A DNA stretch of 64,000 nucleotides from Bradyrhizobium barranii subsp. barranii (lineage in GTDB: Bacteria; Pseudomonadota; Alphaproteobacteria; Rhizobiales; Xanthobacteraceae): positions 2,122,001 through 2,186,000 of the forward strand of contig NZ_CP086136.1 of assembly GCF_017565645.3 (NCBI RefSeq), read 5' to 3'. Numbering within the stretch: the first letter of the stretch is position 1; each line of letters starts with the position of its first letter. Made by a program: the position numbers and the translations under genes. This document shows positions 5,287 through 57,558 of the stretch, piece by piece. Under the pieces are notes generated by a model. It did no database searches and was not told where the DNA came from. It saw nothing but the letters and a program-made list of their open reading frames with translations.

Positions 5287-5993
5287 CGGCGTTCCCCTGG
5301 ACTTAGAAATTGTGAAGCAGCACCACCAGGCGCAGATCTGCACCCTGCTAGCGCATCCCGCCATGCGAGGTCGCCAGTTTTCCGCCAGGGGCTTCTGTGG
5401 CGGGATGGGAACCTGGTAGTTTCGCAACCCGGTTGCGCCGGCGCAACGGTGAGGTTCGCCGCCTCGTCCACCCAGACTGCGTCGACGGTTGGGATACCGA
5501 CGTCTGCGGGTAACAGGGCTACTGTGAAGTGAGCTGTGTCCATTGCCGATCGAAGCATCGGACCGGCGTCCCGTTTGGCGCACCAAGATGAGTGGATGGC
5601 GCTTGCCGAGCGAGGTGAGGATCTGCTGCCAGGTGACGAGCAAAGCGGCGACGCGTATCGTGCTCGATGAGCCGAATGTCCTAGAGACTTCCCGCAGCAT
5701 CGTATCGCCATTGGGATCTCCACCCCCTCAGGCGGCCGGCCGAGCGCATCGCCGGTAAGTCGCCTTCGATCGTCTAGGCTGGTTCTTCAGCACAAAAATT
5801 GGCATGCAGGAGAATATCCGGGACGACCGGATCTTCTACTCAAATGGAACGTTCCTGGCGAGATCGTGCGAATTTCATAATCCGGCACTTTGATTTGAAA
5901 TCCTCCAGACGAAGACCGGTAGAGATTCAAGCCGACACAATACCGGCCAAGGCGGTCCGCGCTGAAGCGCACGCTACGATGAAGGAGGAGATC
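5287..5993. other. Divergent intergenic region
   Basis: About 700 bases between the divergent LAL regulator and the DUF4331 gene. Open frames here are extensions or shadows without ribosome sites. Promoters for both directions must lie here, but no clear -35/-10 pair was seen. Confidence 0.45.
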
Positions 5994-19300: not shown

Positions 19301-19604
19301 GCGCTGGGCAGCTCCCGAGATCTACCGGATCCACGGCTCGCTGCTGTGTCGCGATCCATCGCGGGACGACCGGGCCGCCATGCGCTTGTTCAAGCGCTCG
19401 CTTGCCACTGCCAGGAAGTTCGGGGCGGTCGGTTGGGAATTGCGCACGGCGATCAGCATCGCGCGCCTGGTCAGCGCAGGCGAGAGCGCATCCGGACGCA
19501 CTGAGGCACGAGACCTGCTAATATCGACCCGGGCGAAATTCGCATCCGCGGAAACTTCCCGCGATCTGCGCGAGGCTGATGATCTGGTGAGAGTGTTGAA
19601 CTAG
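16389..19604 (+). CDS. Class III adenylate/guanylate cyclase with AAA ATPase and TPR region
   Basis: A 1071-residue cytoplasmic signalling protein. A cyclase catalytic domain covers about residues 33-210. The metal-binding Asp is in TFIDIVGST (Asp40) and in MIGDGLLAF (Asp84), and VFGSTAHVAARLQ carries the Asn/Arg region, here with His-Val in place of the usual N-x-A-A-R. An AAA/STAND-like ATPase has Walker A GEPGIGKS at 261-268 and Walker B LGIVEDVQWMD. The C-terminal ~450 residues are helical and TPR-like. The family is greatly expanded in Bradyrhizobium; inputs and targets are mostly unknown. In VNTG and VVGSV the catalytic loop looks intact. It has no close partner and no transmembrane part. 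Confidence 0.92.
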   Translation: MSSEPKPDRLGGLQRTQGPPNVENEAPHAERRQLTVTFIDIVGSTPLSERIDPEEFFAIIRTYRDICDEQIRRYGGHIARMIGDGLLAFFGVPQAHENDPERAVRASLAIAGAIKEHKFLLSDGSFVRLGVRIGVNTGVVVVGSVPGEPPDRREVFGSTAHVAARLQGLASENGIVVGSSTYDLTRRTFSYAPLGRQALKGVEEPVEAWRAEALGSNESRFDRARRSPLAPMINRTSESALLAEMWQQTLAGSGQVGVISGEPGIGKSRLIRQFRSSLGASPRDVLSLQCSPFHINTPLAPEIERLIRATGIHETDNAELALAKLQALLASAVTDLKQALRYYGAVLSIPACAGYEPADFGSPLERERAFQVFVDALVAASRKQPILGIVEDVQWMDPTTIELLVRVMARCPGERIMVLITHRDDYKADWLPSTAIRRIPLRKLAAHECEQMVAAVAGSDFVPRQITSQIVERTDGVPLFVEEFTRAVVDAGAVPPAAESPVPKLPEPLVPSSIHDSLMERLDRLGPAKRVAQIASVFGRRFDYEGIFNVFPDKSQTLPQALRALERAGIVYRSKEPQGEVFTFKHAMIQEVAYSSLLMEERRELHARVASWLLQEASIEESGQPAVLGYHYARAGNIPEAIEAWLQAGKSALRRSATKEAVAHLREGLSLISKMPASPRRFEAEIGLQSNLAMAYTANAGWSDPNVYGPYSRALELCASHGTIREKATVLWGSTIAKLVNCELTKGLEHAENFVRRAEEWRNDEAALMAYTAAVIANFFLGRLQQASELAALVSARYNPREHGKLVQIYQHDPLIVSLVYSGHIEWLLGRPGRARECCVTARQLANEIGHPFMVAFASILGVADHWYEGDLAENLASVKRGLKVADEYGYPMYRVIGPLWATAALAARGPAPDALEKLCGLLDKLPAENRCIQMPLYRILLATEFGRIGQMGRARNFAASAEALVKQTGERWAAPEIYRIHGSLLCRDPSRDDRAAMRLFKRSLATARKFGAVGWELRTAISIARLVSAGESASGRTEARDLLISTRAKFASAETSRDLREADDLVRVLN

Positions 19605-35809: not shown

Positions 35810-38468
<2,659 letters not shown>

Positions 38469-38479
<11 letters not shown>

Positions 38480-40535
38480 TCGAGGGCTGCAACAGCGCCT
38501 TAACCGTTGCGATGATATGATCCACGGTGAATCCGAACTCCTGCTGCAACGCCTTCAGCGGAGCGGAAGCGCCAAAAGTGTGCATGCCAATGACTCGGCC
38601 AGTCCTCCCGACGTACCGCTCCCAGCCGAACGTGGACGCCTGCTCGACTGCGACGCGGGCCGTGACCTCAGGTGGCAAGACGGCATCGCGGTATTCCTGG
38701 GTCTCGCGTTCGAAGACATCCCAGGACGGCATCGAGACCACACGCGAGCGGATACCATCCAAGCGAAGTCTCTCATGAGCGTCGGCCGCGAGACTCAACT
38801 CGCTGCCGGTGGCAATCAAGATTATATCCGGCTTACCCTCAGGAGGATCGGCGAGCACGTAGGCGCCTCGCGCCGCCCCGGATGCCGATGCGTACTTGCT
38901 GCGATCGAGGATCGGTAATGGTTGGCGAGACAGCGCCAACAAGGCTGGCCGATGACGAAGCTGCATGATGTAGCGATAGGCCTCAACCACTTCGTTGGCA
39001 TCCCCGGGCCGGAACAGCGTCAGACCTGGCATTGCTCGCATTGAGGCGAGATGCTCGATCGGTTGGTGCGTTGGGCCATCTTCGCCATCGCCCATGGCAT
39101 CATGGGTAAAAACAAACACCACCGGTAATTCCATCAGCGCAGCGAGTCGCATCGCGGGCCGAGCGTAATCGCTGAAGATCAGGAATGTCGCGCCGAACGG
39201 CCGCAGTTTCGACAGTGCGAGACCGTTCAGGATTGCCGCCATCGCATGCTCGCGGATGCCGAAATGCAAATTTTTGCCATCCGGTGTGGCGGCCTGAAGA
39301 TCGCCTGCGCCTTCATAGGTCAAGAGCGTCTTGGTCGATGGACCCAGATCGGCCGAACCGCCGATTAACCAGGGAATGTTTTGCGCCAGAACGTTCAGGA
39401 CCTTTCCCGACGCCTCACGACCCGCAACGCCCTTCGAATCCGGCGGGAATACCGGCAGGTCGCGGTCCCAGCCTTGCGGAAGCGTGCGCTGTTGCATCTG
39501 GTCGATCTCAGTCGCCAGGGCTGGATACTTTGAACGGTAATCGGCGAACAGCTCCCGCCACTTGCGATGGGCTTCTGCGCCTCGCACCCCGACGCCGGCG
39601 GCGAATTGTTCGAGAACGCCGTCAGGCACCAGGAAATTCGATTCTTCGGGCCAACCATAAGCGCGTTTAGTGAGTTTGACTTCTTCAACACCGAGCGGCT
39701 CGCCATGTGCCGCAGCAGTATCGTGACGATGTGGCGAGCCATATCCGATGTGGCTACTGAGCATCACCAGCGTCGGCCGGCCTTTCGTGTCGCGGAACGT
39801 CGTCAAGGCCCGTTCGATGCCCGCGATATCGTTGGCATCACTGACGTACAGGATGTTCCAGCCATAGCCAGTGAAACGGACGGCTACATCTTCCGTGAAG
39901 GCCAGCCGTGTGCTGCCTTCTATCGTGATATGATTGTTGTCGTAGATCCAGCACAGGTTATCGAGGCCGAGGTGGGCGGCCAGCGACGCCGCTTCCGAGC
40001 TGATGCCTTCCATCAGGCAGCCGTCGCCGCATACGGCGTAAATATCGTAGTCGAAGATGGCAAAGTCCGGCTTGTTGTATCGCGCAGCGAGCCAGCGCTG
40101 CGCGATTGCCATACCGACGCTGGTCGCAATGCCTTGTCCGAGCGGGCCACTGGTCGTTTCCACGCCGGACACCAGGTGGTATTCGGGATGCCCCGGCGCG
40201 TGACTCCCAAGCTGGCGAAAGCGTCGGATATCGTCGAGGGTGACAGCGGGCCTGCCCAGCGTTTCGTACTCGGCATTCACGGCCTGCGTGCCCGTGAGGT
40301 GGAGCACCGACCACAGCAGCATCGACGCGTGGCCGTTCGACAGCACGAAGCGGTCGCGGCCGGGCCAGATCGGATCTTGTGGATCGAAACGCATGACCTG
40401 GTTCCAGAGCGTATAGACAAGTGGAGCAAGCGCCATCGGCGTGCCGGGATGACCGGAGTTCGCGGCCTGCACCGCATCGATCGACAGTGTGCGGATGGTG
40501 TTGATCGCGAGTTGGTCGAGTTCGACGTCGGTCAT
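38469..40535 (-). CDS. tkt: Transketolase
   Basis: A 688-residue thiamine-diphosphate enzyme of the non-oxidative pentose phosphate pathway and Calvin cycle. It exchanges C2 units between ketoses and aldoses. Conserved features: SGHPGTPMALAPL with the catalytic His near the start, the TPP motif CGDGCLMEGISSEAASLAAH ending in YDNNHIT, the HIGYGSPHRHDTAAAHGEPL loop, and the pyrimidine-binding FGIREHAMAAILNGLAL with its Glu. The RGAYVLAD segment leads the C-terminal domain. GGAGGAAA lies 7 bases before the ATG. It follows zwf by 140 bases and overlaps the glucosidase gene; the organism probably has a second cbb-type copy elsewhere. Confidence 0.96.
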
Positions 40536-40675
40536 GGTTGATTTCCTCCCGCGGGTGTCGATTACATGGCCGCTGGCGCGCCAACCGGCGTGCGTGCATC
40601 GTCAGCGAGCCGCCGCCATCGAGCAACAGAGCCGGGATCGAGGAGCGCTTCGATCTACATTCCTCACCCTCCGCG

Positions 40676-42055
40676 CTACAGTACCGTCGGGTTGTGCCAG
40701 CCGCCCGGCGGCGCGACATTCTTGTCCACTTCGTGAGGCCCCCAGCTTCCGGCATGGTATTCGTAGACGGGTGTCGTCTTCTTCAAGACCGGATCGACAA
40801 TCCGCCAGGCTTCTTCGACGTAGTCCTGTCGTGCAAACAGCGTCCGATCGCCGTTCATCGCGTCGCCGAGCACGCGTTCATATGCATCCATCTCCTCTGG
40901 GCCAGGGCGCCGGCTGGCCAGCAATTCGACAGGCTCCCCGATTTCTCGATCATCCTCGTCCATCACCATCGTGCCGAGAGCAATGGCCATGTCGGGATTG
41001 ATGCGAAACCGCAAGTAATTCGGTATTGCGGCGCAATGGGGGAAGATCCGCGGCGCCTCACGAAGGCGTACGATCACCTCCGTGCAAGTCACGGGAAGCG
41101 ATTTCCCGGCACGGATGTAAAATGGTACTCCCTGCCAGCGCCAGGAGTCGATCTCCAGCCGGAGCGCGGCGAACGTCTCCACCTGCGACTCCGGAGCAAC
41201 GCCCGGCTCCTGCCGGTAGCCGCGAAACTGTCCGCGCACCAATTCGTTCTCAGCGATCGGCGGGATCGATCTGAGAACCTTGGCCTTCTCGTCACGCAGC
41301 GATTCGCTGTCCGATCGCGCCGGTGGCTCCATCGCCAGATTGGCCAAAACCTGAAACAGATGATTTTGGATAACGTCGCGAATTGTGCCGGTTTGGTCAT
41401 AGAACGCGCCGCGACCCTGCACGCCGAAATTCTCCGCCATCGTGATCTGCACGCTACTCACGAACTTGCGGTCCCAGAACGACTCCAGGAACGCGTTTGC
41501 GAAGCGAAAGAAGACCATGTTGTGAACAGGTCGCTTTCCAAGATAGTGGTCGATGCGGAAGATGTGATCTTCGTCGAACCTGGCGAGCAGAATCCTGTTG
41601 AGGTTGCGTGCGGAGACGAGATCATGCCCGAATGGCTTCTCCACAATCACGCGCGCGCCGTTTGTGCAATCGGCAGTGTCGAGCCGCTCCACCACGGTTG
41701 CAAACAATGCGGGTGGGATCGCCAAATAATGTGCCGGCCGCTGCGCCGAACCGAGCTGCTTGCGAAGGGCGTCGAACGTAGTCGAATCGGCATAGTCGCC
41801 GTCTACGTAACGTAAAAGACCGGCTAGCTTGTCAAACGCAGCGGCGTCGAGGCCGCCGTGCTTTTCGAGGCTATCTCGTACTCGGGCCTTGAGCTGGTCG
41901 AGGGTCCAGCCGGCCTTCGCGACGCCGATGACGGGCACATCGAGGTGGCCCCGCTTCAGCATGGCTTGCAGCGACGGAAAAATCTTCTTGTAGGCAAGAT
42001 CGCCGGTTGCGCCGAAAAATACCAATGCGTCGGATCTGGGTTCGCTCAAGGCCAT
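40676..42055 (-). CDS. zwf: Glucose-6-phosphate dehydrogenase
   Basis: A 459-residue NAD(P)+-dependent dehydrogenase that converts glucose 6-phosphate to 6-phosphogluconolactone. The N-terminus FFGATGDLAYKKIFPSLQ holds the G-x-x-G-D-L coenzyme motif. VIVEKPFGHDL and RIDHYLGK (157-164) form the substrate-phosphate site with Lys164, and the catalytic His is nearby. It lies 9 bases after gnd and before tkt, a tight oxidative-branch pair. No 6-phosphogluconolactonase gene is present in the operon, so that step must be spontaneous or encoded elsewhere. Confidence 0.96.
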   Translation of the reverse strand: MALSEPRSDALVFFGATGDLAYKKIFPSLQAMLKRGHLDVPVIGVAKAGWTLDQLKARVRDSLEKHGGLDAAAFDKLAGLLRYVDGDYADSTTFDALRKQLGSAQRPAHYLAIPPALFATVVERLDTADCTNGARVIVEKPFGHDLVSARNLNRILLARFDEDHIFRIDHYLGKRPVHNMVFFRFANAFLESFWDRKFVSSVQITMAENFGVQGRGAFYDQTGTIRDVIQNHLFQVLANLAMEPPARSDSESLRDEKAKVLRSIPPIAENELVRGQFRGYRQEPGVAPESQVETFAALRLEIDSWRWQGVPFYIRAGKSLPVTCTEVIVRLREAPRIFPHCAAIPNYLRFRINPDMAIALGTMVMDEDDREIGEPVELLASRRPGPEEMDAYERVLGDAMNGDRTLFARQDYVEEAWRIVDPVLKKTTPVYEYHAGSWGPHEVDKNVAPPGGWHNPTVL

Positions 42056-42064
42056 CTGGGTCTC

Positions 42065-43084
42065 TCACTGGCTGCCTTTTTCCAGGTGTCCACCGAACTC
42101 GTAGCGCATCGCCGAAAGCAGCTTGTTCTGGAAATCGGCTTCGCCGCGAGAACTGAAGCGCTCGTAAAGCGCCGTCGTCAGCACCGGAGCGGGGACTGCC
42201 TCGTCGATCGCTGCTGCGATGGTCCAGCGTCCTTCGCCGGAGTCGGATACGCGCCCTGCGAATTTGGAAAGCGCTGGATCTTCCAGCAACGCCGTTGCTG
42301 TCAAGTCGAGAAGCCACGAGGCAACCACGCTGCCGCGCCGCCACACTTCTGCGATCTCGGGCAGATTCAGGTCATACTGGTAGTGCTCGGGAATGCGAAG
42401 CGGCGTTGTTTCGGCGTCCGATGCGTGCGTCTGCTTGCCAATGTTCGCCGCGCGCAGGATACCAAGCCCCTCGGCATACGCCGCCATCAGCCCGTACTCG
42501 ATACCGTTATGGACCATCTTGACGAAATGACCGGCTCCGTTCTGCCCGCTGTGGAGGTAGCCATGCTCGGAGGTGCCGCCGGCGGCGCGCTCTCGTCCCG
42601 GCGTGCGTGGGATTTCGCCGACACCCGGAGCAAGGGTCTTGAAGACCGAATCCAGCCGCTGCACTGCCTGGTCAGGGCCACCGATCATCATGCAGTAGCC
42701 GCGCTCAAGACCCCACACACCGCCGCTGGTACCGACATCTACATAATTGATGCCCTTCTGCGCCAGTTCCTTGGAACGCCTGATGTCATCGATGTAGTAG
42801 GAGTTGCCGCCGTCGATCAGCGTGTCGCCGGCTTCAATCAGCGGCAGCAGATCGCCGATCGATTTATCCACGACGGCCGCGGGAACCATCAACCAGATCG
42901 CGCGCGGCTTTTCGAGCTTCTTCACGAAATCCGAGAGCGAGGAGCTTCCCGTCGCGTTGTCTTTCACCAGTTCCGCAACGGCGTTCGGCGACATGTCGAA
43001 GACGACACATTGGTGACCATGCCGGACAAGTCTTCGCACCATATTGGCGCCCATTCGGCCGAGGCCGATCATTCCGAGTTGCAT
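42065..43084 (-). CDS. gnd: 6-phosphogluconate dehydrogenase, short (YqeC/GndA-like) form
   Basis: A 339-residue decarboxylating dehydrogenase that yields ribulose 5-phosphate. The Rossmann motif is [39 protein letters not shown] and [20 protein letters not shown] carry the substrate Ser/Asn and the G-T-S-G-G loop, and [19 protein letters not shown] carries the catalytic Lys and Asn. The ~340-residue length and sequence match the NAD+-preferring bacterial group rather than the 470-residue NADP+ enzyme; coenzyme preference is inferred. It lies 77 bases after pgi and 9 before zwf. Confidence 0.94.
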
Positions 43085-43161
43085 GAGTGGCTCCTGTTTT
43101 TTGCTGCGGCGTTATTATCTCTCCCCCGTGCGCTGTTAACGTGGCGTGTCGAGATCAGTGT

Positions 43162-44807
43162 CTAGTGCAACTTGTCCCTGAATGCGCGATGTCTGCGGAT
43201 CAACGCATTGGTCGAGCTGTCATGGCCGAATTTGGGTTCGGCTTCGCTGGTGAGTTCCGGAATGATGCGCTGCGCCAGCACCTTGCCGAGTTCGACGCCC
43301 CATTGGTCGAATGAATCGACTTGCCAAATTGCACCCTGAGTGAAGACGTTGTGCTCGTACAGTGCGACGAGTTTGCCGAGCGCCGCGGGTGTCAGCTGTT
43401 CCAGCAGTATCGTATTGGACGGTCGGTTTCCCTCGAACACGCGATGTGGAACGAGCCAATCGGCAGATCCCTCTGCCCTTACTTCGTCACGTGTCTTGCC
43501 GAATGCGAGCGCTTCGCCCTGCGCGAAGACGTTGGCGAGCAACATGTCGTGTCGCTCTCCAAGTTGGTTGAGGGTCGTGTGAAAGGCAATGAAGTCGCAG
43601 GGAATGAGGCGGGTGCCCTGGTGAATGAGTTGGTAGAACGAATGTTGACCGTTGGTCCCGGGCTCACCCCAATAAATCGGACCCGTGTCGTAGCTGAGAG
43701 GATGACCCTCGAGCGTGACGTGCTTGCCGTTGCTCTCCATCGCAACTGTTGGAGATAAGCAGGGAACCGTTTCAGGTATTGCTCGTAAGGCAACACCGCT
43801 ACGGTCTGCGCGCCGAAGAAATTATTATTCCAGATGGCAAGCAGCCCCATTAGTACCGGCAGGTTGCGCTCGAACGGCGCGGTGTGGAAATGCTCGTCTA
43901 TTTCATGGAAACCGCCGAGCATGGCGCGAAAGTTGTCGGGACCGATGGCAAGCATCGTCGAAAGTCCGATCGCCGAATCCATGGAGTATCGACCACCAAC
44001 CCAGTCCCAGAAGCCAAACATGCTGGAGGTGTCGATGCCGAACTTCGTCACTTCCTTCGCGTTTGTCGACACCGCAACGAAATGCTTCGCGACCGACTCC
44101 TCGTCGCCCCCAAGCCCCGCGAGCGACCAGCTGCGCGCGCTCCTGGCGTTGGTCATGGTCTCAAGGGTTGTGAAGGTTTTGGAAGAGATAATGAACAGCG
44201 TCTCCGCTGGATCGAGATCGCGGACCGCTTCCGCAAAATCGGTGCCGTCCACGTTGGAGACGAACCGGAACGTCATGGCGCGGTCGCTGTAATGCTTGAG
44301 CGCCTCGTAGGCCATCACCGGCCCCAGATCGGAGCCGCCGATGCCGATGCTGACGATGTTGCGGATTGGCTTCCCGGTGTGGCCGCGCCACGCACCGCCG
44401 CTTACGCGATTGGAAAAATCGGCCATGCGGTCGAGCACCGAATGGACCTGGGGCACAACGTCCTCGCCATCGACCGGGATCGATTGCCCCTTCGGCGCGC
44501 GGAGCGCGACGTGCAGGACGGGCCGCTTTTCGGAAACGTTGATCCTCTCGCCTGCGAACATCGCATCGATCCGCGCGCGGAGCCCGGACTGTTGGGCCAG
44601 TTGCAACAGCAGAGCCAGCGTTTCGTCGGTAATCCGGTTCTTCGAATAGTCGAGATAGAGTCCCGCTGCTTCGACCGTCAAGCGCTCGCCGCGTTTGGGG
44701 TCTTGAGCAAAGAGCTCGCGCAGATGCAAGCGGTCGATCTTCCGAAAATGGGCGGACAGGGCCTGCCAGGCAGGAAGCTCGGTGACCGTATTCGTGGCCG
44801 TTGCCAT
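43162..44807 (-). pseudogene. pgi: Glucose-6-phosphate isomerase, frameshifted
   Basis: A phosphoglucose isomerase interconverting glucose 6-phosphate and fructose 6-phosphate. The first frame covers about 356 codons with [20 protein letters not shown] and the second family block. It then shifts after FPAYLQQL into nonsense. The correct continuation [35 protein letters not shown] (active-site Glu and His of P-G-T-N-G-Q-H) and [11 protein letters not shown] is in another frame to 43162. One base is missing near 43743, where TTG-xCG-ATG is expected. The joined gene is about 549 codons, the usual length. Because it sits in an intact operon, a sequence error is quite possible. Confidence 0.88.
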
Positions 44808-44820
44808 TCATCGCTCCTGT

Positions 44821-45528
44821 CTAACGCGCCATCGCGGCTTGTGCAGTTTGTTTGCGCGAGCGAGTGATCTTTCCCTTTGGCGCACCGTCCCACAGCTGGA
44901 ATCCACCCTTGAATGCGTTGGCATTGTCGCCAAGCCGGCATAATGGCGGCAGTGTTTTCAATAGTTTGGCGTTGCCGCCGCCCAGCACGACGTCCTCCGG
45001 TTGGAGTGCCGCAACCAGATATTCAACGACATCTTCGACGTGCTTCCGCCATGCTTTCTTGCCAAGTTCCTCCAGCGCGTGCGCGCCGACATAGTCCTCA
45101 TAGATCCCCTTCTTGTACGGTAAGTGTCCAAGCTCCATCGGCTGCACGATGCCATCGACGATCATCGCCGAGCCGAGTCCCGTCCCTAGCCCGAGAAACA
45201 ACATTTTGCCGCTCTGGTAGCTGCCGAGTGCCTGCATCGCCGCATCGTTGATGACTTTCGTCGGTAGATTGAATGCCGCAGCGAAGTCGAAGCCCGTCCA
45301 GCCTTTTCCCAGATTGTGAGGCTCCGCCATAGGACGGTCATGCACGACCGGGCCCGGATAGCCAATCGAGATCAGGTCATATTCCCAGCCATCGGCCAGC
45401 TTTTTGACGCTCGATACCAACTGCCGGGCTGTCATAGTCGACCCGGAGTCAATTTCTCGCTTCACTTTTTCGCCGGAGGCAAGGATCTTGACGTGGGTGC
45501 CGCCCACGTCAATGACCAGTATGTTCAT
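44821..45528 (-). CDS. ppgK: Polyphosphate glucokinase (ROK family)
   Basis: A 235-residue sugar kinase that transfers phosphate to glucose, in this family from polyphosphate and often also ATP. The N-terminus MNILVIDVGGTHVKIL is the ROK/actin-fold phosphate-1 motif. SIGYPGPVVHDRPMAEPHNL, GWTGFDFAAAFNLPTKVINDA (catalytic Asp in N-D-A) and LGLGTGLGSAMIVDG follow, as in PPGK proteins. The start is taken at 45528 rather than the longer upstream frame, matching the family N-terminus. It lies 25 bases after tal and 13 before pgi. In the operon it would phosphorylate glucose freed by the glucosidases and pass it to pgi or zwf. Confidence 0.92.
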   Translation of the reverse strand: MNILVIDVGGTHVKILASGEKVKREIDSGSTMTARQLVSSVKKLADGWEYDLISIGYPGPVVHDRPMAEPHNLGKGWTGFDFAAAFNLPTKVINDAAMQALGSYQSGKMLFLGLGTGLGSAMIVDGIVQPMELGHLPYKKGIYEDYVGAHALEELGKKAWRKHVEDVVEYLVAALQPEDVVLGGGNAKLLKTLPPLCRLGDNANAFKGGFQLWDGAPKGKITRSRKQTAQAAMAR

Positions 45529-45553
45529 GGAAGACCTTTGTCCCGCTTGGAAT

Positions 45554-46639
45554 TTAGCTTGCCTTCTTGAGTACCTCGGTCTTGGCGGAGATGACACTCA
45601 TCAACTCGTTCCAGGATTTGACAAACGATTTGGCGCCCTCATCCTGCAATGTCGCTGCTAGCGCTTCGATGTCGACGCCGGCCTTCGCGAATTGCGAGAG
45701 TGCCTCTTCGGAATCGCCGCCATCGGACGGCAAAATCTCTCCAATCTCGCCGTGATCGGCCAGGGCCTTCACCGTACCTTCCGGCATGGTGTTCACCGTG
45801 AGCGGCGCCGCCAGCGCCTTGACGTACAAAACATCAGACGCTGCCGGATCCTTGGTTCCTGTGCTCGCCCATAACAGGCGTTGTGGCCGCCCACCCTCGT
45901 TGTAGATGCGCCGCGAACGAGCCGAGGAGAACAACTCGCAAGCCGACTTGTAGGTTCGTTTCGCGATTGCAATACCGAGCTGATTGCGCAATTGCGCGGG
46001 CACTTGGTTCACTACGGCGGCATCCCAGCGGCTGACGAAGACCGACGCAACGGATCCAACATTTGGAGTTAGACCGGCTGCGATCCGCCGCTCGACGCCG
46101 CGCAGATATGCCTCGGCGGCAGCGAGATAGTGCTCCCGGCTGAACAATAGCGTCACATTCACGGGCACGCCGGCAAAGATCGTTTCTTCGATGGCGGGCA
46201 ATCCTTCTCGTGTACCGGGTATCTTGATGAAGAGATTGGGGCGTTTCGCCTGGGCATGCAGTTCCTTGGCCGCCGCGATTGTGCTGGCCGTGTCATGCGC
46301 GAGAAGGGGCGAGACCTCGAGCGAGACCCACCCGTCTACACCGTTGGTGCGGTCCCAAATCGGACGGAACAGGTCTGCTGCCTGGGCTAGATCGTCGATT
46401 GCGAGTTCGAAGAATAACGTCTCGCCCGACTTTCCCTCCGAGAGCTTGCTGCGGATAGCTGAATCATAGTGAGAGCTGTTCTTGATCGCATGGTCGAAGA
46501 TTGTGGGGTTAGATGTGAGTCCCGTCAGCGACAAGTCGGTGATGTAGCGCCTCAACGTGCCGCTGTTCAGCAGGTCGCGGGTGATGTTGTCGAGCCAAAC
46601 GCTCTGTCCGAGTTCGTGGAGTTTTTGCGTTCCCTTCAT
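45554..46639 (-). CDS. tal: Transaldolase
   Basis: A 361-residue class I aldolase-fold enzyme of the non-oxidative pentose phosphate pathway that transfers a dihydroxyacetone unit. Recognisable blocks are WLDNITRDLLNSGTLRRYI, GLTSNPTIFDHAI, VSLEVSPLLAHDTASTI and RPNLFIKIPGTREGLPAIEE, with the Schiff-base Lys in I-K-I-P. GVPVNVTLLFSREHY and the S-T-x-x-K-x-P region (WASTGTKDPAASD) follow. Length and features fit the long Actinobacteria/alphaproteobacteria type. GGAGGTGAAG precedes the ATG at 46639. It lies 4 bases after the HAD gene and 25 before ppgK. Confidence 0.94.
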   Translation of the reverse strand: MKGTQKLHELGQSVWLDNITRDLLNSGTLRRYITDLSLTGLTSNPTIFDHAIKNSSHYDSAIRSKLSEGKSGETLFFELAIDDLAQAADLFRPIWDRTNGVDGWVSLEVSPLLAHDTASTIAAAKELHAQAKRPNLFIKIPGTREGLPAIEETIFAGVPVNVTLLFSREHYLAAAEAYLRGVERRIAAGLTPNVGSVASVFVSRWDAAVVNQVPAQLRNQLGIAIAKRTYKSACELFSSARSRRIYNEGGRPQRLLWASTGTKDPAASDVLYVKALAAPLTVNTMPEGTVKALADHGEIGEILPSDGGDSEEALSQFAKAGVDIEALAATLQDEGAKSFVKSWNELMSVISAKTEVLKKAS

Positions 46640-46643
46640 CGCT

Positions 46644-47336
46644 TCACCTCCGCATGGCTTCGAGTCGTGGGGCGGCCGCAAGCAGACGTCCCAGATCACA
46701 ATCGAGCAGATCTCCGATCCGGTCCACCGTCACGTCGGGTGTGGCGAAGGAGGCGAGGGCGTTCGCGTCATGCGCATATTGTCCTTGTCGGGGAAGGACG
46801 GTGGTGACGCGGTTGCCCCAAGCCTCTTTGACCGCGGCAAGGATTCGCGGCTTGTCATCAACCAGAACGTAGTGCAGCGCCGGATAGCGAGCCTCGACAT
46901 CATCGAGCGCGAGTTCCTTGTGGATGTAGATCAGCACGTGTGAGTTGACTGCCTCCAAAAGTCCGGAGCGCTCGACTTTCCGGGGTTGAAAGACGACGTC
47001 GCCATCGGTGAGAAGGACGGTTGGGCCCCACTGACGTAGTTGTTCGAGCACATCCAGGGATCCCGGGTACAACCGATTGGCGAACGGGTAATCGACCAGG
47101 AATGACGACATGGACAATAAGTGCATGTCCTGGGGGTGTTCGATGCGGTACCGCTGGAGCGCACCGAGATAGTCTCGATAGCCCAGTTCTTCGAACAACT
47201 CCTCGAGAATTGCCCAGTACCGATCGCGACAGGGGGCTCCGAACCGGCGCTCGAGGTAGGCCTTGATATCAGCCTGGATACGATCGTTATCGAGAAGCGT
47301 ATTGTCGACATCGACCAGAAAGACGACCTGGTTCAT
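46644..47336 (-). CDS. HAD-superfamily hydrolase
   Basis: A 230-residue phosphatase-like protein. Motif I is VFLVDVDNTLLDND (nucleophile and acid Asp), motif II is TVLLTDGD, motif III includes the Lys of FQPRKVERSG, and motif IV is HYVLVDDKPRILAAV. The cap is small and helical. The substrate is unknown; within this operon it could dephosphorylate a sugar or polyol phosphate. The ATG at 47336 is chosen because it directly starts the conserved NQVVFLVD strand. It is the second gene of the operon, 4 bases before tal. Confidence 0.88.
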   Translation of the reverse strand: MNQVVFLVDVDNTLLDNDRIQADIKAYLERRFGAPCRDRYWAILEELFEELGYRDYLGALQRYRIEHPQDMHLLSMSSFLVDYPFANRLYPGSLDVLEQLRQWGPTVLLTDGDVVFQPRKVERSGLLEAVNSHVLIYIHKELALDDVEARYPALHYVLVDDKPRILAAVKEAWGNRVTTVLPRQGQYAHDANALASFATPDVTVDRIGDLLDCDLGRLLAAAPRLEAMRR

Positions 47337-47436
47337 CGGTCTTACCCTTACGCTACTCTCTGCAATATGCTCACCCTGCGCGCCTTGCACGCACGCGCAT
47401 ATTCAAGTCTATGTTACTCCGACTGGCACTTCCATC

Positions 47437-48057
47437 TCAGTGCGCGAAGGCTGGTGGGAACCGACCTTCGACGTGCCCGGTGTCATTCCACAGTCGGACC
47501 GCTGGCTCTGACTGATCGTGTTCGTACCCGAGTATGCTCAGGCTTGCAGTGTCGAGCGTAAAGAGTCGTCCGGCCTCCGCATCGAGGCCTAACCAGCGTG
47601 CTGTCAAAACTCGGAGAAAATGTCCGCTCGAAAACAATAACACGTCACCTGGGACGTTGCGAACACGCTCCACAATGCGATCAGCCCGGGCGCCGACTTG
47701 ATTCGGTGCTTCTCCTCCTGGACAGCCGTCGCGAAACAATTGCCAGCCTGGACGCTCTTCATGGATTTCCTTTGTGCGACGCCCCTCGTATTGGCCGTAA
47801 TTCCATTCCAGCAGATCGCAGTCGGGCTCCGCCTCGACTCCGAAACCAGCTAACTCCGACGTCCGGACCGCTCGCTTCAGGGGGCTTGTGAACACTTTTG
47901 CGAAAGTGAAACCCAGCAACCGCGCGCCCAAACTCTGCGCATTGAGTTCGCCGCGCTCAGTGAGAGGCAAGTCTGTGAGGCCTGTATGCTGGCCTGAGAG
48001 GCTCCACGCCGTCTCGCCATGCCTTGCGAGGCAAATGATCGGAAGGACGGCGCTCAT
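47437..48057 (-). CDS. Histidine phosphatase (phosphoglycerate-mutase-like)
   Basis: A 206-residue branch-1 histidine phosphatase. The signature is CLARHGETAWSLSGQHTGLT with the phospho-accepting His of R-H-G. FTSPLKRAVRTSELA supplies the second Arg, LLEWNYGQYEG the Glu, and LLFSSGHFLRVLTARWLGL the second catalytic His. Members include phosphoglycerate mutases, fructose-2,6-bisphosphatases and sugar-phosphate phosphatases; the specificity is not decidable here. It is the first gene of the minus-strand carbon operon, 100 bases before the HAD gene. The gene ends at 47437 without overlap. Confidence 0.9.
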   Translation of the reverse strand: MSAVLPIICLARHGETAWSLSGQHTGLTDLPLTERGELNAQSLGARLLGFTFAKVFTSPLKRAVRTSELAGFGVEAEPDCDLLEWNYGQYEGRRTKEIHEERPGWQLFRDGCPGGEAPNQVGARADRIVERVRNVPGDVLLFSSGHFLRVLTARWLGLDAEAGRLFTLDTASLSILGYEHDQSEPAVRLWNDTGHVEGRFPPAFAH

Positions 48058-48794
48058 GGTCTCGCCCCTTCAGCTTCGGCCTGCCACCGCGTGCGGTAAG
48101 AACCGAACTCGGGACACTTCGAAGGAAGGCATCTTTATCGTCAACGCCTTCAAGGTCCGTGCGCATACATGCCCACTGGTAGCGCGACTTCTTCGGAGAA
48201 GCAACGATCCCGCTCGCGTTATGACAGTTCGGCACTCGAACGGATGTGCGTCTGAAACGCTGACCTATTCGCTTAGGCATGTTCCACTATGGCGCCGGAG
48301 TTCTTTGAACCGGCCCGCCTTAGGAAGGAGCGCTGAATGCCACGGTCGGCGGAGGCGATCCGAATTCTGATTGAGATTGGCGCATACTGCGTCTGAGACG
48401 AAAGTGCGAAAGTTACTTCTAGGCAGCACTCCAGGACTTGAGCGAAACTCCTAGTTCGTCGCCGGCTCTCGCAAGAGCCTCGGCGAGCTCACGCGGGACG
48501 TGCTAGGATTGGTGGTACATCAACATCGAAACTGGCACGTTCGTGCCACGGGGCTGCCGATAATCGGGACCGGCGACCTTCGCCTGTCGAGCTATTGAAA
48601 GTGCGGAGCAGTTGATCTGGATGCAAACGACGTTCTTCGTCCATTTCAGCTGGTTCGGAAGTTAAGAAATGTTACTGGCGAGGGCCGCGCGCGAAATTGC
48701 GAGCAAAAGACGAATATCGTTGTGTCGTTTCGCTGCCTCAAGGGATTGATGATCGTGGGGCTCGATCAGCGTCGAGCGAGGAGGAGACGAGATC
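48058..48794. other. Divergent region upstream of operon and glucoamylase
   Basis: About 740 bases. It must hold promoters for the minus-strand carbon operon and the GH15 gene. A short minus-strand stretch (48422-48505) reads HVPRELAEALARAGDELGVS and then a stop; it may be a remnant of a gene, but it has an in-frame stop just upstream and no identity. Confidence 0.4.
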
Positions 48795-50108
48795 ATGGGC
48801 TACAAGCCGATCGAGTCCTACGGCGTCATCGGCGACCTGCACACCGTTGCCCTGGTTGGCATCGACGGGTCCATCGACTGGTGTTGCCTGCCGCACTTTG
48901 ACTCGCCAAGCGTTTTCGCGGCGATCCTCGACGATCAGAAAGGGGGCTCATTCCGCATCGCTAGTCTCTACGAGGCGCAGCACAAACAGATGTACATGCC
49001 TGACAGCAACGTCCTGGTGACGCGCTTTCTTAGCGACCAGGGCGTCGGTGAAGTCGTGGACTTCATGCCGGTCCAGGGCCCGTGCGAGATCAGAAAAATC
49101 CACCAGATCGTCCGAGTAGTGCGAGCGGTTCGCGGGTCTGTCCGTTTCCGCCTCGACTGCCGGCCGGCTTTCGATTTCGCCCGCCGGCCCCATCAGGTCA
49201 TCCTGGAGGGCTGGGGAGCGATCTTCGAGGCGCAAGGCATGAAAGTCTCGCTGGTCAGCCGCTTCCCGCTTGGTCGGCAAGGCGACGGCGTCGCTGCCGA
49301 GTTCGTCCTCAACCCCGGCGAGACGACCACGTTCATCCTCCGCCAGGTGGAGGAGAACGGCCACGGCAGCGTTCATGATGGGGTCCTGCTCGAGGCGCGG
49401 CTGGTCGGCACGGAGGCGCTGACGCAGACCCTGGCTTTTTGGCGGCAGTGGCTGAGGAAGTGCAGCTATTCAGGTCGCTGGCGGGAGATGGTCCACCGCT
49501 CGGCGCTGGTGTTGAAGCTGCTGACGTTCGCGCCGACCGGCGCGATCGTGGCGGCGCCGACCTGCGGGCTGCCGGAGGAGATCGGCGGGGTGCGCAACTG
49601 GGACTATCGTTATACTTGGGTGCGCGACGCCGCTTTCACCAATTACGCCTTCCTGCGCCTGGGGCTGACGTCGGAGACGGAGCAGTTCATGGCCTGGTTG
49701 GAGCAGCGGGCCGTCGAGGGCGCCCGGGGCGACCCGTTGCAGACTATGTATCGCATCGACGGTGGCCGCGAGCTGCCCGAGGAGATCCTCGACCACCTCG
49801 ATGGCTACCGCGGGTCGCGTCCAGTGCGAGTCGGTAACGCCGCTGCCGACCAGCTGCAGCTGGACATCTATGGCGAACTGATGGATGCGGTTTACCTGTA
49901 CGACAAGTACGGGACGCCGATCGCCTATGACTCCTGGCGCCACGTGCGCAAGATGCTGGACTGGGTGGCGAGCAACTGGGAGCGAGCCGACGATGGCATC
50001 TGGGAGGTGCGCGGTGGACAACAGCAGTTCGTGTACTCCAAGGTGCAGTGCTGGGTGGCGCTGATGGGTCTCGGAGCCGCACCAGGAAGAGCAAGCTACG
50101 GCATGTAG
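48795..50108 (+). pseudogene. GH15 glucoamylase-type glycoside hydrolase, 3'-truncated
   Basis: A 437-residue product of a family whose members are usually about 600 residues. The N-terminal beta-domain begins [30 protein letters not shown] (given in two parts). The catalytic barrel begins [20 protein letters not shown], then [20 protein letters not shown], the family signature. The barrel breaks after VQCWVAL, where [14 protein letters not shown] and a stop replace the expected D-R-G-x-x-L-A continuation. The C-terminal third, which holds the second catalytic Glu, is absent from any frame nearby. It is probably inactive. GAGGAGACGAG precedes the ATG. It is divergent from the carbon operon and was presumably its partner. 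Confidence 0.85.
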
Positions 50109-53614: not shown

Positions 53615-54442
53615 TCATGCGGCCATCACCATAGCTTGCGTGCCGAAGTAAGCCTCGTCGGGCGTGCGCCCGTCAAGGCTCGAGTGAGGGCGTCCCTGAT
53701 TGTAGAAGGCCAGATACTTGGCAATTGACGCTCGCGCCTCGGACACGCTGTCGTAGGCGCGGAGATATACTTCTTCGTATTTGACCGTGCGCCAGAGCCG
53801 CTCGACAAACACGTTGTCGCGCCAGGCGCCCTTGCCGTCCATGCTGATGGCGATCTTCGCGTCCAGCAGCACATCGGTGAACTCGAGGCTGGTGAACTGG
53901 CTGCCCTGATCCGTGTTGAAAATCTCGGGCCTGCCGTGCTTCGCCAACGCCTCCTGGACCGCTTCGACGCAGAAGGCCGCCTCCATTGTGATCGAGACGC
54001 GATGGGCCAGGACCCGTCGGCTGAACACATCGACGACCGCCGCGAGATAGACGAAGCCACGCCGCATCGGAATGTAGGTGATGTCCATTGCCCACGCATG
54101 GTCGGGCCGCTCGATCTTCAATCCGCGCAACAGGTACGGGTAGATCTTGTGACCCGGAGCCGGCTTGCTCGTGTTCGGGCGACGATAGACCGCCTCGATC
54201 CGCATGCGCTTCATCAGCGTCGCGATGTGGCGGCGACCGGCGTATACGCCCTCCCGCCGCAGCAACGATCGCAGCATACGCGCTCCCGCGAAGGGATAAT
54301 CGAGATGCAGCTCATCGAGCCGACGCATCAAGGCAAGGTCCTCGGCCGAAACTGGCCGAGGTTCATAGTAGACCGTGCTGCGAGCCAGCTTCAGGACCTT
54401 CGCCTGGCGCACGATAGAAAGATCATGATCGCGGTCGATCAT
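53615..54442 (-). CDS. IS3-family transposase, orfB (DDE integrase)
   Basis: A 275-residue catalytic protein of IS3-type transposition. The DDE triad is visible: Asp in AWAMDITYIPM, Asp in FNTDQGSQFTS, and Glu in DNVFVERLWRTVKYEEVYLR. An N-terminal helix-rich region (LYEPRPVS-like YYEPRPVSAEDLALMRRLDE) is the HTH_21-type domain. Its ATG overlaps the orfA stop by 4 bases (ATGA). In this family a fusion OrfAB is normally made by ribosomal frameshifting in the overlap; no clear slippery run was identified here. Confidence 0.93.
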   Translation of the reverse strand: MIDRDHDLSIVRQAKVLKLARSTVYYEPRPVSAEDLALMRRLDELHLDYPFAGARMLRSLLRREGVYAGRRHIATLMKRMRIEAVYRRPNTSKPAPGHKIYPYLLRGLKIERPDHAWAMDITYIPMRRGFVYLAAVVDVFSRRVLAHRVSITMEAAFCVEAVQEALAKHGRPEIFNTDQGSQFTSLEFTDVLLDAKIAISMDGKGAWRDNVFVERLWRTVKYEEVYLRAYDSVSEARASIAKYLAFYNQGRPHSSLDGRTPDEAYFGTQAMVMAA

Positions 54443-54744
54443 CGCTTTGCGCTCAGCAGGCCCGCCTTGGTGAGCGCGCCGGACAAAAAATCGTTTTCCA
54501 ACGCCAGCTCGCCGATCTTGGCATGTAACGCCTTCAAATCGACCGGCGTCTCGGCCGATGTCTTGTCATGCCCAAACACGCCGGCGGCGCCTTCCAGGAG
54601 CTGGTTTTTCCAGATCGTGATCTGGTTCGGATGAACATCAAACAGTTGCGCCAGCTCCGCCAGTGTCTTGTCGCCTTTGACCGCAGCCAAAGCAACCTTC
54701 GCCTTGAATGCCGGAGAATGCGTCCGGCGGCTCTTCTTCGTCAT
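54439..54744 (-). CDS. IS3-family transposase, orfA (DNA-binding)
   Basis: A 101-residue DNA-binding subunit. A helix-turn-helix of the HTH_Tnp_1 type lies in SPAFKAKVALAAVKGDKTLA then ELAQLFDVHPNQITIWK, followed by a leucine-rich coiled region (LKALHAKIGELALENDFLSG) used for multimerisation. The ATG at 54744 has AGGAG 6 bases upstream; the longer frame is upstream read-through. The stop overlaps orfB. Confidence 0.93.
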   Translation of the reverse strand: MTKKSRRTHSPAFKAKVALAAVKGDKTLAELAQLFDVHPNQITIWKNQLLEGAAGVFGHDKTSAETPVDLKALHAKIGELALENDFLSGALTKAGLLSAKR

Positions 54745-54832
54745 CTTCGCTCCTGATTCGCAGCAAGAATCCTCGCCGCTGTCAGGCAGAAAATCCACTC
54801 AAGCTACTGTCCGAATTTGCGGGGCCAGCTCT

Positions 54833-55280: not shown

Positions 55281-56822
55281 ATGCAAGTTTACTTTAGCCA
55301 CAGCTACCGCGACGTTGCGGTCAACGGGTACTTCATCGACAAGTTCGCGAACGAGGATCTCCCGTTACGAGCGGACCAAAAGACTGACATCTGGTGCGTC
55401 GCGAAACTTGAACGCTACCTCTCCGAGATGGGGGGCTTCATCTCGGTCATTCCCTGTCGACCCACCGACGCGGACCTAGGTGGTTACTCACCTTACATCG
55501 GTAGGGAGCTGGACCTCGCCCGTCGCGCGCGTGTCCCTCGCCTGCTCTTCGTCGATGAACGGGTCCTTCGTCACCATCAACTCGAATTTCCTGAGGATGC
55601 CGTTTCATTCAAGGCTGATGAGCCGGCGGAGGCTGCAGGCCAACATGATGAGGCTATAAGAGCATTTAGGCTTGCGCTTGAAACCACAGTGAGACCTGAG
55701 CGGCAATTATCCAAAGAAGCAATTGTGGTTGCGGCGGGCACTGGGACGCTGAGGGACGCGGCTCGAGACGTAGTTGAGATACTCCGGCGACATAATTTCC
55801 GCGTTACGCCGTTGATCGGCAAGTTCAATGATCGAGGTCTTGATGACATCCGCCTTCTCGAAGCGATCTGGCGTTCGGAGCTTTGCATATTCCTACTTGG
55901 CGAGAGGTTATCCGACACTCACTTGGCGCTGGCACTTGCGCACGCCCATTGCATACCTTCGATTCGCTTGCAGCACTCTCCAACCGCGGATCAATGTGCA
56001 CCGACCATTTCCGGTACGATTCACTGGCGGGATCGCGGAGAGATGCTGGTAGAGCTCGAGCGTCAGGTATCTAGCTATCGCGAGGGGCTCGTGCGGCCTG
56101 TCGAGATCGCCCAAGGATTAGGCGCAACCGATGCCGCTCGTGCCATTGGAACGATGCGCTGGCGCCATCGTCCTGAAAACCTCTGGGATGTCGACGACGG
56201 TGGGGCGATCTTGTCACATGTCCGTCCGGATCTAGCCTTCATCCAAGACGAGGTAAACCGCGCTCGCCGTGCATATGGAGCTTCCTTTGCCAATGCGCGT
56301 GGGCGTGAGGCGATGATGCAAATCTGCCGGCACATATACGATGGAATCCGTCGCCACCGGTTTGGATTTGAACTCGAGCCAAAAGGTCCAGAACCCAGCG
56401 TTCAGATCGTGCGAAGTCCTTTGCAGATCGAGACTCACCGCACAGCAAACTGCTTAGACTTGGCATGCCTTTTCGCGAGTTTAATCGAGGCCGCTGGCCA
56501 AGCGCCAATCATCGTCATCGTGGACGGTGACGGCTTTGCGCATGCTTTGGTTGGGGCGCGTGGCTTCAGCGAGCCCGCATGGCGCAACTCCCAACTCGGG
56601 GATCTCCGCCGTGCGTTGAGCCTTGGAGATGCGTTGTTCTTTGAGCCGACAGGTGCAGTCGAGGCGGACGCTCCTGTGGCAGACGAACTTGAACAAGATC
56701 GTTGCGACAAGCTTCTCGACTTTGCAACGGCAAGGCTGGCAGCGGAGCGGACGATTAAGAGAGACGATATCCGCGTTCGGCACGTTGTGGACATTCTGTA
56801 TCTTAGGCAACGGCAGAGTTAG
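55281..56822 (+). CDS. TIR-like / transglutaminase-like multidomain protein
   Basis: A 513-residue cytoplasmic protein with no family name known to me. Residues ~1-105 look TIR-like: QVYFSHSYRDVAVNGYFIDK, then LERYLSEMGGFISVIP, with a possible catalytic Glu in YIGRELDLARRARVPRLLFV. Residues ~147-235 look like a second Rossmann/TIR-like or SLOG-like unit (AIVVAAGTGTLRDAARDVVE, LCIFLLGERLSDTHLALALA). Residues ~340-470 form a transglutaminase-like peptidase: Cys391 in RTANCLDLACLFASLIEAAG, His421 in GDGFAHALVGA and an acid near FFEPTGA (Glu455). The ATG at 55281 (after a TTG) is chosen; the ribosome site is weak. A second gene follows after 4 bases. Next to an IS and with lower GC than neighbours, it resembles a mobile defence-type module. 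Domain calls are by eye. Confidence 0.75.
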   Translation: MQVYFSHSYRDVAVNGYFIDKFANEDLPLRADQKTDIWCVAKLERYLSEMGGFISVIPCRPTDADLGGYSPYIGRELDLARRARVPRLLFVDERVLRHHQLEFPEDAVSFKADEPAEAAGQHDEAIRAFRLALETTVRPERQLSKEAIVVAAGTGTLRDAARDVVEILRRHNFRVTPLIGKFNDRGLDDIRLLEAIWRSELCIFLLGERLSDTHLALALAHAHCIPSIRLQHSPTADQCAPTISGTIHWRDRGEMLVELERQVSSYREGLVRPVEIAQGLGATDAARAIGTMRWRHRPENLWDVDDGGAILSHVRPDLAFIQDEVNRARRAYGASFANARGREAMMQICRHIYDGIRRHRFGFELEPKGPEPSVQIVRSPLQIETHRTANCLDLACLFASLIEAAGQAPIIVIVDGDGFAHALVGARGFSEPAWRNSQLGDLRRALSLGDALFFEPTGAVEADAPVADELEQDRCDKLLDFATARLAAERTIKRDDIRVRHVVDILYLRQRQS

Positions 56823-56826
56823 AAAA

Positions 56827-57558
56827 ATGGCGAGCCCCGTAAAGACGTACCAAACTGAAATGCATACGAATCTCGGGTTCTTCGCGACTTGGTTGCCGGG
56901 GGATCCGATTGATATCGGCGATGTAGGCACCATGGTCGACGGACGTTTCCGGCGGCTCTCGTCACTGGCCGAGATCGACGTTGTTTGCGAAGCAAGTGAT
57001 CCAGGTCCTGCACAAAGCGTGCAATATACCTCGGCAAGAGGCACGAAGGTGGAAACCAAGGCGGCGGCAGACTTGGTAGGCGTTGCCAATGCCGAGGTCG
57101 CGATTAATTTCTCGACCGAAGGTGCATTCGTATTTCATGCAAGCGGTTTACGAGCACGCCAACTCAAGAACTTGCCGGCTATAGAGAGAGGCGTTCTCAA
57201 GGCCTACGAGAAGGGCAAGTGGCAAAAGGATTGGTTCATCATAGACGCGGTTCAAGAGTCAAGCTGCACCACGATCATTGTCTCTCAAGATACGGCGGCG
57301 AGCCTTGTGCTTACAGCGAAGCTTGCGGGGGGCTTAGCCGCGCTTTCTCTGGCTGATCCAAAGCTGGGCCTGCGCGTCTCCGCAAGTAGCGGCAAGTTAC
57401 TGCACGTTGTCGGCGGGCGATCTCTCAAACCACTCTATTCTTGTCTGAGAGTTCAGAGTCGTCTTTTTGGACCCGCTTCGCTCAAGCCGGTCCTGGGAGG
57501 AACAGATCATTCGTCAGGATTTGAACGTGCGAGTCTAGGTGATCTCGTCGAACACTGA
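56827..57558 (+). CDS. Unrecognised 243-residue partner of the TIR/transglutaminase protein
   Basis: The start is 4 bases after the preceding stop, so the two genes are translated from one message and probably act together. The N-terminus MASPVKTYQTEMHTNLGFFA and then TWLPGDPIDIGDVGTMVDGR reads like a small ordered domain. The middle (VAINFSTEGAFVFHASGLRA, DWFIIDAVQESSCTTIIVSQ) alternates polar and hydrophobic residues as in membrane-inserting beta-hairpins. A C-terminal amphipathic part (KLAGGLAALSLADPKLGLRV) follows. I do not recognise a family. The pattern of an effector next to a protease-like sensor recalls gasdermin-type pore-formers, but the sequence similarity is too weak to claim. 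There is no signal peptide. Confidence 0.7.
   Translation: MASPVKTYQTEMHTNLGFFATWLPGDPIDIGDVGTMVDGRFRRLSSLAEIDVVCEASDPGPAQSVQYTSARGTKVETKAAADLVGVANAEVAINFSTEGAFVFHASGLRARQLKNLPAIERGVLKAYEKGKWQKDWFIIDAVQESSCTTIIVSQDTAASLVLTAKLAGGLAALSLADPKLGLRVSASSGKLLHVVGGRSLKPLYSCLRVQSRLFGPASLKPVLGGTDHSSGFERASLGDLVEH

What the first reader, a model, noticed from the sequence alone, without database searches (positions are those of the whole stretch)
55281..57558. Candidate two-gene defence-type module: TIR-like/transglutaminase-like protein with an unknown partner
Seen: two genes 4 bases apart, right after an IS3 element. The first combines a TIR-like N-terminus, a second Rossmann/TIR-like unit and a transglutaminase-like C-H-E region; the second has no recognised family. 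Known: TIR and transglutaminase-like domains occur in bacterial immune and effector systems. Inference: the first protein senses or processes, and the second is the effector. GC is lower than in the flanking backbone by eye.
Basis: partly seen in the sequence, partly recalled or inferred. Interest (0 to 1): 0.75.

Follow-up and report, generated by a model that had tools for sequence, protein, structure and literature searches.

The report
TIR-protease gene with gasdermin-like partner
Two adjacent bacterial genes appear to encode a sensor-protease and a gasdermin-like pore protein that it probably switches on by cutting, a bacterial version of the "cut a gasdermin, punch the membrane, kill the cell" trick, here with a kind of protease that the papers we could search do not link to gasdermins.

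Summary
Both genes are real: A = 55281-56822 (513 aa), B = 56827-57558 (243 aa), same strand, four bases apart. A folds as TIR + TIR-like unit + transglutaminase-like cysteine protease with conserved Cys391, His421, Glu455. B matches no family library, but its model's twelve best PDB matches are all gasdermins, and one of three profiles built around it hits a single PDB sequence, a bacterial gasdermin, at E 0.0017. Most relatives of B carry Arg (here Leu) then Gly 20 residues from the C-terminus, then a conserved end: the place where published bacterial gasdermins are cut. A and B are adjacent in 8 of 8 other loci. Three of three distant B relatives on annotated plasmids have a caspase-like CHAT gene nearby (no control). 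Best explanation: a TIR-gated transglutaminase-fold protease cuts and activates a gasdermin that kills the cell, perhaps against phages. Cleavage, pores, TIR chemistry and defence are inferred; a weak neighbour scan found no defence genes. New variant of a known kind.

The parts
55281..56822 (+). Gene A: TIR / TIR-like / transglutaminase-like cysteine protease, 513 aa
   Evidence: ORF; at least 230 relatives; AlphaFold2 model mean pLDDT 91; domain folds
55281..55694 (+). TIR domain 1 (residues 1-138), candidate catalytic Glu76
55710..56090 (+). Second TIR/DNPH1-like domain (residues about 144-270), no conserved acidic residue in the stretch judged equivalent to Glu76
56187..56795 (+). Transglutaminase-like cysteine protease domain (residues about 303-505): Cys391, His421, Glu455
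56827..57558 (+). Gene B: gasdermin-like pore-forming protein, 243 aa
57484..57498 (+). Candidate cleavage site in B: residues 220-224, between Leu223 and Gly224, leaving 20 residues
   Evidence: Position 223: Arg 110, Leu 4, Gln 3, Lys 1, gap 2 of 120; position 224: Gly 113 of 120; the one stretch with pLDDT below 50 is 220-230
57520..57555 (+). Conserved C-terminal end of B (residues 232-243), candidate autoinhibitory peptide
   Evidence: Phe/Leu232 118, Arg234 114, Leu240 118, Leu241 114 of 120; short helix 237-241 in model
53615..54798 (-). IS3-like transposase reading frames upstream (context, not part of the module)
   Evidence: ORFs of 275 and 119 aa with overlapping ends; label by eye

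Best explanation
A and B form a two-gene, protease-activated gasdermin module. B is a gasdermin-fold protein held inactive by a short C-terminal tail. A is a single polypeptide that combines a sensing/signalling half (a TIR domain with the conserved glutamate, plus a second TIR-like domain that lacks it) and an executing half (a transglutaminase-fold cysteine protease, Cys391-His421-Glu455). On infection or another insult the TIR half changes state (makes or binds a nucleotide such as an NAD derivative, or oligomerises), the fused protease is released and cuts B after Leu223 (Arg in most relatives) next to Gly224; the tail falls away, B oligomerises into membrane pores and the cell dies. Shown by computation: predicted folds, conserved residues, conserved pairing, conserved tail motif. 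Inferred: the trigger, the cut, the pore, cell death and a role in phage defence.
Confidence: 0.68

Rival explanations
1. B is a gasdermin-like pore former, but A's transglutaminase-like domain does not cut it; A acts as a TIR NADase, as an acyl-transfer or deamidating enzyme on B or another protein, or as a scaffold that holds B until triggered.
For: Transglutaminase-fold relatives that are not proteases (peptide:N-glycanase) are among the structural matches; TIR Glu76 is invariant in 117 of 117, so A could be an NADase effector itself.
Against: Known bacterial gasdermins are protease-activated and sit beside proteases (PMC9612521, passages); B's conserved Arg/Leu-Gly tail motif; B's distant relatives lie near CHAT genes.
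Confidence: 0.17
2. The module is a regulated cell-death or lysis device with another purpose (for example gene-transfer-agent release, kin recognition or development), not phage defence.
For: No PADLOC match for A or B or among 51 neighbours; a CARD-NLR-like system that resembles immune gasdermin systems controls gene-transfer-agent release in Caulobacter (PMC13236601, passages).
Against: Patchy spread across phyla: Tahibacter's A and B are closer to those of Gemmatirosa (51.0 and 52.9%) than to those of the Rhizobiales MAG (42.2 and 39.9%); lower GC; plasmid or transposase company in some loci. These fit conflict genes but are not proof.
Confidence: 0.3
3. B is not a gasdermin but another member of the wider MACPF/CDC/gasdermin-like pore-former fold, with its own activation.
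Against: Gasdermins fill the first 20 VIA rows and the top 12 Foldseek rows; size, short tail and protease partner fit bacterial gasdermins.
Confidence: 0.1

Closest known systems
Bacterial gasdermin (bGSDM)-protease systems (Runella, Vitiosangium, Bradyrhizobium, Lysobacter)
   Same: Short single-domain gasdermin fold, about 20-residue tail after a Leu/Arg-Gly site, adjacent protease gene (PMC9612521 passages)
   Different: Sequence-divergent family not caught by Pfam; no N-terminal cysteine; partner is a TIR-TIR-transglutaminase-fold protease, whereas the review's legend to four drawn operons names caspase-like (C14, CHAT), trypsin-like and peptidase U49
Fungal gasdermin + HET-Q2-like protease pairs
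   Same: Two-gene gasdermin + protease clusters; CHAT is one of the protease types, as near B's distant relatives (PMC10989679 passages)
   Different: Fungal proteases there are mostly subtilases or CHAT; no TIR or transglutaminase-like unit in the passages read
Thoeris with a caspase-like effector (type IV, label recalled)
   Same: TIR logic coupled to a protease (only a title in a reference list was seen; details recalled)
   Different: There TIR and a caspase-like protease are separate proteins; here TIR and a transglutaminase-fold protease are one protein with a gasdermin-like gene downstream
ProA anti-phage protein (NF058533); by inference the DUF4011/DUF3320 type
   Same: Homologous transglutaminase-like domain with the same Cys, His and Glu in 10 of 10 ProA loci aligned; A also matches annotated DUF4011/DUF3320 proteins
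   Different: ProA is about 1900 residues; A shares only that domain (58 bits against a cut-off of 1500)
Transglutaminase-like peptidases in vWA-MoxR conflict systems (Kaur et al. 2020)
   Same: Transglutaminase-like thiol peptidase as a rare N-terminal domain of VMAP proteins (PMC7159879 passage)
   Different: The word gasdermin does not occur in that text

Membership tests
Bacterial gasdermin (gene B) | Gasdermin N-domain fold | tested here: met
Bacterial gasdermin (gene B) | Detectable sequence homology to a characterised gasdermin | tested here: inconclusive
   A3 profile: only PDB hit is 7n50 gasdermin, E 0.0017; A2 and A4 profiles: 0 hits; Pfam none
Bacterial gasdermin (gene B) | Short protein with a roughly 20-residue C-terminal tail preceded by a Leu/Arg-Gly motif | tested here: met
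   Arg/Leu223 in 114 of 120 and Gly224 in 113 of 120 aligned homologues, 20 residues from the end; cleavage itself untested
Bacterial gasdermin (gene B) | Protease gene next door | tested here: met
   A, with a transglutaminase-like domain, adjacent in 8 of 8 other loci; CHAT gene adjacent (2) or 2.5 kb away (1) for 3 of 3 distant relatives
Bacterial gasdermin (gene B) | N-terminal palmitoylated cysteine (reported for the majority, not all; so not strictly defining) | tested here: not met
   Cys in first 12 residues in 1 of 120
Bacterial gasdermin (gene B) | Membrane pore formation after tail removal | not testable with these tools
   needs liposome leakage or microscopy
TIR domain (gene A, 1-138) | TIR fold with conserved glutamate | tested here: met
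TIR domain (gene A, 1-138) | NAD+ cleavage or cyclic-ADPR production | not testable with these tools
   biochemistry needed
Transglutaminase-like cysteine protease (gene A, 303-505) | Transglutaminase-like fold with Cys-His-Asp/Glu | tested here: met
Transglutaminase-like cysteine protease (gene A, 303-505) | Peptide-bond cleavage | not testable with these tools
   biochemistry needed
ProA anti-phage protein (NF058533) | Whole-protein score over the curated cut-off | tested here: not met
   58.4 bits against 1500
Thoeris with caspase-like effector | Caspase-like protease component | tested here: not met
   the protease domain of A is transglutaminase-like by sequence and fold; no caspase or CHAT match in A or B (where Pfam found nothing at all)
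CARD-NLR gasdermin system | NLR-like ATPase and CARD components in the operon | tested here: inconclusive
   no third gene shared among the loci; A's and B's assigned folds are not ATPases; the neighbour test was coarse

The most novel reading that the evidence does not exclude
A minimal 'one-protein inflammasome': signal generator (TIR), receiver (degenerate TIR-like domain) and executioner protease (transglutaminase fold, a class the papers searched do not tie to gasdermins) are fused in one polypeptide, which makes or senses its own nucleotide signal and then cuts a sequence-divergent gasdermin. Gasdermin activation would have been invented with yet another protease fold, on the same kind of Leu/Arg-Gly tail site.
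Probability: 0.42. Interest if true: 0.85.

Novelty: new variant of a known kind. Interest (0 to 1): 0.72.

Why it matters
Gasdermins are the pore-forming executioners of inflammatory cell death from bacteria to humans. If this reading holds, a divergent gasdermin family is missed by the libraries used here (no Pfam, PADLOC or NCBIfam match for B), it pairs with a protease fold not known, in the papers searched, to activate gasdermins, and the TIR fusion gives a direct, testable link between TIR signalling and gasdermin pores in a two-gene system. B's distant relatives near CHAT genes suggest one gasdermin lineage that has changed its activating protease while keeping an Arg/Leu in the tail.

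Tried and rejected
Family libraries: Pfam, PADLOC and NCBIfam gave nothing for B and only a ProA-domain match for A; single members of the A family gave weak Pfam transglutaminase hits (10 of 31, best E 0.0029). Single-sequence PDB searches gave nothing useful, nor did the A1 profile (best E 0.23). Foldseek of whole A gave unspecific Rossmann hits; the domain picture comes from the VIA second look. Viral origin: A1, A2 and A3 found no relative in viral contigs, A none in phage records, and B's model no match at E <= 0.001 in the viral structure library. Rarity: A2 and A3 each matched 1 of 398 genomes of the phylum, the window's own (the listed rows show at most 6 candidates scored a genome). 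Defence island: 51 of the 91 neighbour reading frames listed were scanned; 0 matched PADLOC at 1e-10, and the Pfam scan showed mobile-element and housekeeping families (25 of 32 families shown). This is a weak test: the frames were picked by length, some in GC-rich loci are probably not genes, and PADLOC-DB dates from 2023. The picker also missed A and B in L003; both are there. L003 and L004 are close relatives (A 87.5%), so the 8 loci are not 8 independent cases. Considered and dropped: that A is a ProA protein; that the pair is Thoeris or CARD-NLR. The window's own taxon was not determined. Whether the primary bacterial gasdermin papers (Johnson 2022, Wein 2025) already list this pair could not be checked: neither is held. 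No paper held all of 'bacterial gasdermin' + TIR + transglutaminase, gasdermin + transglutaminase + antiphage or DUF4011 + transglutaminase; the one paper with transglutaminase-like + phage defense + protease + TIR has no gasdermin. These searches cover open-licence PMC papers only.

Full report
WHAT IS THERE. Gene A (55281-56822, 513 aa) and gene B (56827-57558, 243 aa) are clean ORFs on the plus strand with four bases between them, about 480 bases after an IS3-like pair of frames on the other strand (IS3 by eye). The pair has 56.2% GC against 58.9% on the left (45.0-53.5 kb) and 63.7% on the right (57.9-64 kb).

THE PAIR IS A UNIT. A scan of genome contigs with the A family gave 15 pattern matches, 7 of them relatives; all 7 (Hymenobacter, Larkinella, a Burkholderiales MAG, Paracidovorax, Tahibacter, a Rhodospirillales and a Rhizobiales MAG) have B directly downstream on the same strand. 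The Gemmatirosa kalamazoonensis plasmid makes it 8 of 8; two of the eight are close relatives of each other (L003, L004). Gaps are 13-35 bases to the start of the B profile match. Comparing neighbours across the loci finds only A and B in common (L003 lacked them there through the frame picker). Of the 120 listed A clusters, 35 share a longest-contig length with a listed B cluster; shifting the lengths gives 0.9 on average, 4 at most in 120 shifts, so many metagenome contigs carry both. Identities of A and B correlate at r 0.93 over nine loci and 0.82 without L003, with 0 of 10000 permutations as high in either test: they are inherited together. Spread is patchy: Tahibacter's genes are closer to Gemmatirosa's (A 51.0%, B 52.9%) than to the Rhizobiales MAG's (42.2%, 39.9%). 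It is rare: 1 of 398 sampled genomes of the phylum, the window's own.

THE TAIL. In 120 aligned B homologues positions 221-224 read Pro (102), Val (93, Ala 23), Arg (110, Leu 4, Gln 3), Gly (113); 225-231 are variable; the end is conserved: Phe/Leu232 (84+34), Arg234 (114), Leu240 (118), Leu241 (114). Some residues just before (Phe214 94, Pro217 93) are conserved too. The window's B has Leu223-Gly224, with 20 residues left from Gly224 to the end, inside the one stretch of the model with pLDDT under 50 (220-230). A review states that bacterial gasdermins are cut after Leu or Arg about 20 residues from the C-terminus, that in one of them only the Leu and the adjacent Gly were essential, and that a peptide of about 20 residues is the inhibitor (PMC9612521, passages). 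The match of residue, neighbour and distance is the strongest functional hint. The N-terminal cysteine of most known members is missing (1 of 120).

PARTNERS OF DISTANT RELATIVES. tblastn of B against plasmids found 4 records: Gemmatirosa (43%, with A) and three at 22-26%, which B's own family profile finds at 8.7e-35 to 4.6e-20. All three have a CHAT-domain (caspase-like) gene: divergent neighbour in Streptomyces avidinii, upstream neighbour in Embleya, 2.5 kb away beyond three genes in Mesorhizobium (CHAT E 4.6e-62, 4.7e-14, 1.1e-11). No background rate of CHAT genes was measured. In a 26-row alignment around the Mesorhizobium and Embleya proteins an Arg 25 residues from the end is invariant and a conserved end follows. 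The review's legend names caspase-like including CHAT, trypsin-like and peptidase U49 partners. One lineage thus seems to keep the gasdermin and a basic or Leu tail site while changing the protease.

MECHANISM. Most likely A is trigger plus protease and B the pore. Shown by computation: folds, residues, pairing, tail motif. Inferred: a nucleotide or oligomerisation signal through the TIR half; cleavage of B after Leu223; pores; death. Anti-phage purpose is plausible from the class and the company of TIR and ProA-type domains, but the neighbourhood gives no support (0 of 51 scanned of 91 listed frames; weak test).

NOVELTY. New variant of a known kind: bacterial gasdermin-protease pair with a sequence-divergent gasdermin family and a TIR-TIR-transglutaminase-fold protease. 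No paper in the searched library combines these terms, but the primary papers with the published gasdermin lists are not held, so prior listing in a supplement cannot be excluded. A 2020 survey mentions transglutaminase-like peptidases as a rare domain of vWA-MoxR conflict proteins, without gasdermins (PMC7159879, passages).

Noticed in passing
L025:4415-10513 (Rhizobium johnstonii plasmid pRlX2): A NACHT/AAA protein with an N-terminal transglutaminase-like domain that scores best of the relatives tested against A's profile (E 4e-22) follows an LCAT/esterase-type lipase gene and precedes an 890-residue protein: a possible second case of this protease type beside a membrane-attacking effector.
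   Followed up: partly
L024:6001-7278 (Hymenobacter sp. YIM 151858-1 plasmid): A 425-residue protein carries A's TIR + TIR-like half with a different C-terminal part and no protease match; no B-like frame in the locus.
   Followed up: partly
L012:7382-16350 (Mesorhizobium sp. AR10 plasmid): The gasdermin-like gene lies among a SUMF1/FGE-type gene, ASCH, QueC-like and CHAT genes; FGE-type genes are also named near known bacterial gasdermins.
   Followed up: no
window genome G000:C1:1065406-1070037 and C1:518083-522930: The window's own genome has two further long relatives of the ProA family, below its cut-off.
   Followed up: no
NF058533 (ProA), loci L014-L023: ProA-family proteins pass the curated cut-off in 26 of 299 genomes of the phylum, and the ten loci aligned carry a transglutaminase-like domain with Cys-His-Glu; no paper found joins DUF4011 and transglutaminase.
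   Followed up: partly
window 35810-50108: A sugar-metabolism stretch: GH63/MGH1-like, transketolase, glucose-6-phosphate dehydrogenase, phosphoglucose isomerase, ROK family and a GH15/trehalase-like gene.
   Followed up: no
window 16389-19604 and 2476-5700: Two large signalling proteins: guanylate cyclase + AAA_16 and AAA_16 + LuxR.
   Followed up: no
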